Shown piece after piece: positions 7,849 to 8,290 of a stretch of DNA of 64,000 nt (positions are counted from its first letter, which is position 1; each line of letters begins with the position of its first letter). The notes beneath the pieces were generated by a model. It made no database searches. It saw only the letters and a list, made by a program, of their open reading frames with translations, and was not told where the DNA came from. The translations under genes and the position numbers were made by a program. Origin of the DNA: Panorpa germanica (lineage: Eukaryota; Arthropoda; Insecta; Mecoptera; Panorpidae); NCBI GenBank assembly GCA_963678705.1, contig OY783216.1, positions 12,710,001 through 12,774,000 on the forward strand. Reading direction: 5' to 3'.

Positions 7849-8290
7849 GAAGTCAAAATGAGCATGTAATACATCAGGGATGATCTATTCCTAGCTCCCT
7901 CAGAATACTCGTTAGCCCATTGTGTCGCAGAAGACCTGCATATGAGTAAAGGTATTGCAGTAACATTCAAAGAGAAATTTGAAGACTTGAGAAAGGTTTA
8001 AAAACAACAAAGAAAAGTAGGGGAGGTTGCAGTTCTAAAAAGAGATGGAAGATTTATTTATTACCTGATTACAAAATGGAGAAGTTCCGGAAACCAACGT
8101 ATCAGGATCTTTGGCGGTTATTGGTATCACTACGAGAATACATCCTGCAGCAACAAGTAAAGAAGTTAGCCATTCCACAAATAGGTTGCAGACATGATCA
8201 TTTGATGTGGGCACATGTAGAGCGCATGCTGAAATACGTGTTCTATGATTTAGAGATCAACATTCAGGTTTATAAACCAGAACCACTAAC
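7849..8290 (+). pseudogene. Gypsy-M pol, part 2: OARD1/TARG1-type macrodomain
   Basis: The translation from about 7873 gives 'DDLFLAPSEYSLAHCVAED', then 'MSKGIAVTFKEKF', 'GEVAVLKRDGRFIYYLITK', 'KPTYQDLWRLL', 'IPQIGCRHDHL' and 'INIQVY'. This follows the whole fold of OARD1 (TARG1), an enzyme that removes ADP-ribose from proteins and deacetylates O-acetyl-ADP-ribose. The two residues known to be essential in that family are present: the Lys of 'LITK' at 8074-8076 and the Asp of 'GCRHD' at 8196-8198. It lies between RNase H and the integrase zinc-binding region, in the pol reading order. The copy has a TAA at 7999-8001 and a one-base frame change near 8085-8092. Downstream of that the frame is open straight into integrase (8076-9464), which shows it was part of the polyprotein and not a chance neighbour. 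Confidence 0.85.

What the first reader, a model, noticed from the sequence alone, without database searches (positions are those of the whole stretch)
7849..8290. OARD1/TARG1-type macrodomain built into a Gypsy polyprotein
Seen: between RNase H and integrase of Gypsy-M the translation follows the whole OARD1 macrodomain ('SLAHCVAED', 'GIAVTFKEKF', 'GEVAVLKRDGRFIYYLITK', 'IGCRHDHL'), with both residues essential in human TARG1 (Lys84 and Asp125 equivalents) kept, and its frame runs on into integrase. Known: OARD1 is a cellular enzyme that cuts ADP-ribose from glutamate. Inference: a retrotransposon captured a host gene and used the enzyme against ADP-ribose-based defence or PARP activity at integration sites, as some viruses do with other macrodomains. 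I do not know of a standard Gypsy domain list that includes it.
Basis: partly seen in the sequence, partly recalled or inferred. Interest (0 to 1): 0.88.

Follow-up and report, generated by a model that had tools for sequence, protein, structure and literature searches.

The report
Gypsy retrotransposons carrying a captured TARG1 enzyme
The window holds a worn-out copy of an insect jumping gene whose replication protein contains a copy of a host enzyme that removes ADP-ribose tags, and related jumping genes seem to have picked up the same enzyme more than once, which hints at an unrecognised host defence that they need to undo.

Summary
Window 7870-8291 encodes an OARD1/TARG1-type macrodomain between RNase H and integrase of a Ty3/Gypsy pol. 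The window copy is dead (stops, a frameshift). Thirty sister copies fetched from the same genome all have the domain at the same junction without a stop; 18 scored rows lie in a 1389-aa open frame, and one copy has 656-bp LTRs without a difference. The domain models as human TARG1 (1.0 Å rmsd) and keeps the TARG1 catalytic lysine and aspartate; pN/pS is 0.145, like the adjoining integrase. It is not a one-off: the same genome has two further Gypsy families with it, and ten database proteins with Gypsy domains carry it, at four junctions in all. Several captures are the best reading: a weevil element and family B each carry sequence resembling the flank of their own host lineage's OARD1 gene. 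The trees alone do not settle it: one origin of all Gypsy macrodomains is not rejected (p 0.09-0.12). Function is inferred: most likely an active ADP-ribosyl hydrolase that strips ADP-ribose from element proteins or nucleic acid ends. I found no report of it in the open-licence papers searched; fish endogenous retroviruses with macro-domain ORFs are the precedent.

The parts
6578..7017 (+). reverse transcriptase core of the Gypsy pol (family A), broken in this copy
   Evidence: tblastn with sister copy L002; RVT_1 on ORF 6742-7692
7222..7611 (+). RNase H
   Evidence: 93% identity to sister copy; RT_RNaseH E 5.6e-35
7612..7869 (+). linker between RNase H and macrodomain; stops at 7690-7692 and 7867-7869
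7870..8291 (+). OARD1/TARG1-type macrodomain, with an in-frame stop (7999-8001) and a frameshift at about 8073-8085
   Evidence: human OARD1 best hit for all three pieces; sister copies
8637..9161 (+). integrase zinc-binding and core domains, in the same frame as the second half of the macrodomain (ORF 7983-9464)
9523..9690 (+). integrase C-terminal part, out of the integrase frame in this copy
9771..9784 (+). polypurine tract
   Evidence: same place relative to the LTR as in sister copy L059
9785..10097 (+). probable 3' LTR (TG...CA ends); no matching 5' LTR found in the window

Best explanation
A Ty3/Gypsy LTR retrotransposon of an insect has a host-derived TARG1/OARD1 macrodomain built into its Pol polyprotein between RNase H and integrase. 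The domain is most likely an active mono-ADP-ribosyl hydrolase that travels with reverse transcriptase and integrase and removes ADP-ribose put on by host PARP-type enzymes, either from acidic residues of element or chromatin proteins or from the ends of the element's RNA and cDNA, so that reverse transcription and integration can finish. The need for it was strong enough for Gypsy elements to acquire the domain more than once. Shown: identity, position, intact sister copies, purifying selection, catalytic residues, occurrence in several Gypsy lineages at four junctions. Inferred: catalysis, target, benefit, placement in the particle; several captures are the better-supported reading, not proven.
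For: Intact copy P0068 matches human TARG1 over 135 of 141 residues, E 3.6e-43. Predicted model (pLDDT 91.9) superposes on TARG1-ADP-ribose 4j5s at 1.0 A, TM 0.94, with DarG macrodomains next. All 30 distinct family-A places fetched keep ITK and GCGHD (37 loci, 7 of them repeats) and the order RT-RNase H-macro-integrase, none with a stop in the domain. Across 22 Gypsy macrodomain rows Lys84 is kept in 21 and Asp125 in 22, although family C is only 31-32% identical to A. pN/pS: macrodomain 0.145, integrase 0.168, RT 0.083, RNase H 0.090 in A; macrodomain 0.28 in B. LTRs of one copy 656/656 identical. Four junctions used. Papers: TARG1 removes ADP-ribose from Glu/Asp and from thymidine in DNA, and K84A abolishes the rescue (PMC8501950, passages); it cleaves ADP-ribose from terminal phosphates of dsDNA and ssRNA (PMC8053099, passages).
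Against: No activity measured. One family-C copy (L051) has Asn for Lys84 and another (L053) lost the GCG part of the loop, and a more diverged RNase H-integrase domain in L058 lost the Asp, so catalysis is not kept everywhere. In family B the macrodomain's pN/pS (0.28) is higher than that of its RT (0.087), RNase H (0.014) and integrase (0.075). Selection was measured on the copies most like an intact one, which favours low pN/pS. I know of no described insect ADP-ribosylation defence against LTR elements; none was searched for.
Confidence: 0.55

Rival explanations
1. Reader, not eraser: the domain binds ADP-ribose and steers the integration complex to PARylated chromatin or DNA breaks, as chromodomains steer chromovirus integrases.
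For: It sits beside or behind integrase in family A, in 4 of 6 family-C loci (in the other two no integrase match was found) and in P0076, P0095, P0097, P0100, P0101, P0103, P0105, P0107, P0108. TARG1 gathers at DNA damage in a PAR-dependent way (PMC8053099 passages).
Against: Binding alone would not need Lys84 and Asp125, which are nearly invariant. In family B and P0104 the domain is far from integrase, next to protease.
Confidence: 0.2
2. Spacer or folding part: the domain is kept because it holds the polyprotein in shape or times its cleavage, with no ADP-ribose role.
For: pN/pS only shows that the protein is kept.
Against: The residues kept across rows 31-98% identical to family A include the catalytic ones; the domain occurs at four different junctions, unlike a fixed spacer.
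Confidence: 0.1
3. One ancient capture, then relocation within pol and loss in many lineages, rather than several captures.
For: All Gypsy macrodomains as one clade is not rejected: p-AU 0.119, 0.088 with the host gene added. Seven other unions tested are not rejected either (p 0.13-0.57), among them A plus the after-integrase group (0.325). In the first macrodomain tree A, B, P0100 and the C lineage even fall together, weakly (66/86).
Against: All RNase H-integrase domains as one clade: p 0.0093, 0.032 with host. Domains of one well-supported RT clade as one clade: p 0.0044, 0.026. Host-gene flanks specific to weevils in P0095 and to its own host in family B. 13 AU tests were run, uncorrected.
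Confidence: 0.2
4. Chance insertion of a host gene into one dying element.
For: The window copy is broken.
Against: 30 of 30 sister places fetched have the domain at the same junction; 18 of the scored rows have a 1389-aa open frame.
Confidence: 0.01

Closest known systems
OARD1/TARG1 (C6orf130) macrodomain hydrolase, human 4j5r/4j5s
   Same: Sequence 70 of 135 aligned residues identical, fold 1.0 A rmsd, Lys84 and Asp125 kept
   Different: Human TARG1 is a free-standing cellular protein; here it is a domain of a retrotransposon Pol. Cellular insect relatives printed have long N-terminal stretches, and several have a second macrodomain-like part; P0076 also has a second part, none was seen in family A (by reading)
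Ty3/Gypsy (Metaviridae) LTR retrotransposons, 412-like
   Same: protease-RT-RNase H-integrase pol behind and overlapping a first ORF, TG...CA LTRs, 4-base target duplication; best integrase hit is named a transposon-412-like Pol of a spider
   Different: Extra macrodomain between RNase H and integrase. The first ORF stands where gag should be but has no Pfam gag match
Fish epsilon-like endogenous retroviruses with macro-domain ORFs (Basta et al. 2009)
   Same: Retroelement with a captured macro-domain gene
   Different: Vertebrate retroviruses; described as additional ORFs. Known to me only through one passage in PMC4977317; the original paper is not held, and whether its macro domain is TARG1-type was not seen
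Macrodomains of plus-strand RNA viruses (alpha-, coronaviruses)
   Same: Viral element carrying an ADP-ribose-binding or -hydrolysing domain
   Different: Structure match far weaker (alphavirus 3gqo TM 0.75, 17% identity, against TARG1 0.94, 51%)
DarG antitoxin macrodomain
   Same: Next nearest fold (5m3e, TM 0.84, 25% identity); removes ADP-ribose from DNA
   Different: Bacterial antitoxin; lower similarity than TARG1

Membership tests
OARD1/TARG1 macrodomain family | Best sequence and fold match is TARG1 rather than another macrodomain | tested here: met
   family A, sequence and fold; families C and B, sequence only
OARD1/TARG1 macrodomain family | Catalytic Lys84 and Asp125 | tested here: met
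   30 of 30 family-A places fetched; Lys 21 of 22, Asp 22 of 22 Gypsy rows. Window copy keeps both codons but its frame is broken
OARD1/TARG1 macrodomain family | ADP-ribosyl-glutamate or DNA/RNA-ADP-ribose hydrolase activity | not testable with these tools
   no assay
Ty3/Gypsy LTR retrotransposon | Order protease, RT, RNase H, integrase | tested here: met
   on sister copies; the window copy has RT-RNase H-integrase
Ty3/Gypsy LTR retrotransposon | gag gene | tested here: inconclusive
   a 429-aa ORF lies in the right place in L059 but matches no Pfam gag family
Ty3/Gypsy LTR retrotransposon | LTRs with TG...CA ends, polypurine tract, short target duplication | tested here: met
   one sister copy (L059/L060): 656-bp identical LTRs, AAAGAGGGGGAAAG, duplication CTAT
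Ty3/Gypsy LTR retrotransposon | tRNA primer-binding site after the 5' LTR | tested here: inconclusive
   TGGTGTCAGAAGTGGG lies 2 bases after the LTR, but no tRNA was matched to it
Errantivirus-type Gypsy with env | envelope gene after pol | tested here: not met
   family A, one copy: only 46 bases lie between pol (ends 5767) and the 3' LTR (from 5814) in L059. Family C does have one: L050 ORF of 626 aa matches Baculo_F E 6.8e-61
Plus-strand RNA virus macrodomains | nearest fold or sequence is a viral macrodomain | tested here: not met
Fish ERV macro-domain ORFs (Basta 2009) | sequence relation of the domain | not tested
   paper not held

The most novel reading that the evidence does not exclude
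The TARG1 macrodomain is a repeatedly captured accessory enzyme of insect Ty3/Gypsy elements, taken from the host gene several times and fitted at four different pol junctions. This would mean that insects mark LTR-retrotransposon proteins or cDNA with ADP-ribose as a defence that has not been described, and that elements answer by carrying the host's own eraser.
Probability: 0.4. Interest if true: 0.9.

Novelty: new variant of a known kind. Interest (0 to 1): 0.78.

Why it matters
Viral macrodomains are studied as counter-defence against PARP enzymes, mostly in RNA viruses of vertebrates (general knowledge). Here the same kind of enzyme sits inside the replication protein of genomic parasites of insects, is under selection, and has been fitted at several junctions. 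If several captures hold up, they point to an ADP-ribose mark that gets in the way of reverse transcription or integration, and the retained domain gives a purified-protein test of what that mark is. It also bears on the open question of what TARG1 protects in cells.

Tried and rejected
Rejected: chance insertion (sister copies); origin from an RNA-virus or bacterial macrodomain. Not settled: one origin against several (13 AU tests, uncorrected; four of them, two clades each tested with and without the host row, were under 0.05, nine were not). The family-A flank does not match host-gene flanks convincingly (host: 195 of 5000 shuffles; best of 23 flanks 44 of 2000, host 71 of 2000; against the family-B flank 69 of 5000), so a direct capture scar for A is not shown. 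Other element flanks gave only weak blastp matches (such as P0108 to P0087, E 0.005, not next to the macrodomain there). A control against cellular flanks printed nothing and was done instead. A scan of IMG/VR found nothing. Among 67 integrase relatives none had a macrodomain by blastp at 1e-3, but many are too short to include the junctions. The species was not identified. Only 30 of the scored family-A places were fetched, those that matched an intact copy best; older copies were not. Rows left out: rows with a stop (A: RT 2, RNase H 3, integrase 2 of 37; none elsewhere); from the 22 Gypsy rows near-identical copies, partial ones (L054-L057), L058 and P0113; from the macrodomain trees nine near-identical cellular proteins, P0113 and, L051, L052 and the second domains. 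Nine retrotransposon/macrodomain paper searches showed no report; they cover open-licence PMC papers only, one search listed 20 of 27 papers, one search listed 30 of 2,018, and Repbase and GyDB were not available. A tenth search was on TARG1 and DNA ADP-ribosylation. Papers seen: PMC4977317, PMC4695847, PMC8501950 and PMC8053099 as passages; all others in listings only. That position 84 is the catalytic lysine of TARG1 agrees with PMC8501950; Asp125 rests on memory and on the finding.

Full report
What is there. Window 7870-8291 reads as a TARG1/OARD1-type macrodomain between the RNase H and the integrase of a Ty3/Gypsy pol. Because the copy is broken it was searched in pieces, and each of the three pieces has human OARD1/C6orf130 as its best match among PDB chains, E 4.1e-9, 2.2e-9 and 1.8e-9. 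Stops at 7867-7869 and 7999-8001 and a frameshift at about 8073-8085 mean that this copy is dead; the second half of the domain shares its frame with integrase (ORF 7983-9464). A polypurine tract and a probable 3' LTR follow at 9771-10097; no 5' LTR was found. The copy is 90% identical in DNA to an intact sister over 3.8 kb.

Sister copies. The window lies in a 464-Mb, 249-contig genome held as G000, taken to be an insect's because its OARD1-like gene matches those of cockroach, locust and beetles; the species was not identified. A search with the intact domain scored 150 of 595 candidates and returned 150 matches, some of them two pieces of one copy (lower bounds). The top group, family A, includes the window copy; 18 rows have a 1389-aa open frame through the domain. 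All 30 places fetched (L009-L038, the best matches) have the order RT-RNase H-macro-integrase and no stop in the domain. The intact domain matches human TARG1 over 135 residues, E 3.6e-43. One copy (L059 with L060) has LTRs identical over 656 bp, a CTAT target duplication, a polypurine tract, a 429-aa first ORF in the place of gag (without a Pfam gag match), a 1389-aa pol frame starting with an aspartic protease, and no room for env. The family has therefore moved recently.

Selection and active site. Among family-A copies pN/pS is 0.145 for the macrodomain, against 0.168 integrase, 0.083 RT and 0.090 RNase H; in family B the macrodomain gives 0.28, above its RT (0.087), RNase H (0.014) and integrase (0.075) (sums over pairs of distinct sequences, 16 for A-macro and 8 for B-macro, rows with stops left out). 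The copies used are those nearest an intact one, which lowers the ratio. All 30 distinct places (37 loci, seven repeated) keep the ITK and GCGHD motifs. Across 22 Gypsy rows the equivalent of Lys84 is kept in 21 and of Asp125 in 22; the 25 cellular rows keep both. The 22 rows include near-identical copies of A, B and C. Exceptions: L051 has Asn at 84, L053 has lost the GCG of the loop, and a far-diverged RNase H-integrase domain in L058, not among the 22, has lost the Asp. The model of the intact domain (10-row alignment, pLDDT 91.9, pTM 0.88) matches TARG1 with ADP-ribose (4j5s) at 1.0 A, TM 0.94; DarG macrodomains come next at TM 0.84 and 25% identity.

The feature is widespread. Family B in the same genome (about 47-48% identical in the domain) has it upstream of RT in 9 of 9 loci fetched, behind the protease where that was looked at (L042), in frames up to 1638 aa. 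Family C (31-34%) has it after RNase H in 6 of 6 loci and before a detected integrase in 4 of 6; copy L050 is followed by a Baculo_F-type envelope ORF. In the protein database, of 45 proteins returned with the domain (P0069-P0113), 10 carry Gypsy domains: RNase H-macro-integrase in P0076, P0095, P0103, P0108; after integrase in P0097, P0100, P0101, P0105, P0107; before protease in P0104. P0111 is probably an eleventh: it begins with sequence like the integrase end of P0097 (by eye). P0101 is filed under a mildew fungus, probably arthropod contamination (inference).

One capture or several. The RT/RNase H tree (24 rows) puts family A with the after-integrase elements P0097 and P0105 (99/99), and family C with P0076, P0095, P0100, P0103, P0108 and one neighbouring element of unknown domain content (99/98); B and P0104 are in neither. 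The macrodomain tree does not follow it: RNase H-integrase domains as one clade p 0.0093, and the domains of the second RT clade as one clade p 0.0044; with the host's own gene added the values are 0.032 and 0.026. Against several captures: all Gypsy domains as one clade is not rejected (0.119 and 0.088), nor are the seven other unions tested (0.13-0.57), and in the tree without the host gene A, B, P0100 and the C lineage fall together at 66/86. Thirteen AU tests were run, uncorrected. Flanking sequence says more: the 40 residues before the domain in the weevil element P0095 match the same stretch of cellular OARD1 proteins; the six best of 23 flanks are five proteins of weevils (family membership of those species recalled) and P0086, an unnamed one that groups with them in the trees (best, P0089: 0 of 2000 shuffles). 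The flank of family B matches its own host's OARD1 exon (0 of 5000 shuffles; 1 of 2000; next flank 55 of 2000). Family A shows no convincing scar (195 of 5000). The host gene (L061) reads as having two introns inside the macrodomain, with splice-like borders, and a second macrodomain-like part; P0076 has a second macrodomain-like part as well, as if the two-domain gene had been taken. Direction host to element, through spliced RNA, is the natural reading.

How it probably works. TARG1 removes ADP-ribose from Glu and Asp and from thymidine in DNA, and K84A abolishes the rescue (PMC8501950, passages); it cleaves ADP-ribose from terminal phosphates of dsDNA and ssRNA (PMC8053099, passages). Retrotransposon cDNA has free ends, and its integration makes breaks, both things that PARP enzymes act on (general knowledge). 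The best reading is that the element brings an eraser with its Pol. Whether the target is Gag or Pol, chromatin protein, RNA or cDNA ends is open. A reader role near integrase is the main rival.

Known or new. The searched library has no paper joining OARD1 and Gypsy and none joining macrodomain, retrotransposon, Gypsy and integrase; the one paper with 'macro domain' and 'gypsy' (PMC4977317) reports, in the passage seen, macro-domain ORFs in fish retroviruses, citing Basta 2009. So a retroelement with a macro-domain gene is known; a TARG1 domain inside Gypsy pol, at four junctions and under selection, I did not find described in the nine searches made.

Noticed in passing
L050:445-2322 (-): Family C copy L050 has an envelope ORF of the baculovirus F type right after pol, so a macrodomain-bearing errantivirus-like element exists in this genome.
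   Followed up: partly
L058:5970-6359 (-): Very diverged macrodomain-like stretch (26% identity) between RNase H and integrase, catalytic Asp lost; may be an old inactive domain shared by more Gypsy pols than a search would show.
   Followed up: partly
L061 (G000:C19:722000-725000): Host OARD1-like gene, apparently with introns in the first macrodomain, and a second macrodomain-like part; a second part is also seen in cockroach P0069 and P0072.
   Followed up: partly
P0106: 703-aa protein of unnamed source with a macrodomain at its C-terminus after sequence resembling the tail of a non-LTR retrotransposon protein (by eye only); possible capture by another element class.
   Followed up: no
window 30766-34731: Copia element with an uninterrupted 1321-aa gag-pol frame.
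   Followed up: no
window 26705-27703 (-): Mariner-type transposase in two adjoining frames (Transposase_1, DDE_3 in 26705-27181; 27182-27703 by eye).
   Followed up: no
window 44991-46614: Two overlapping frames with no Pfam match above cutoff; by eye the second ends like a tyrosine recombinase.
   Followed up: no
window 10412-10688 and 12332-12608: A 277-bp direct repeat at 96% identity flanking a fragment with a retroviral protease match (11530-12129); looks like LTR parts of a second, truncated element.
   Followed up: no
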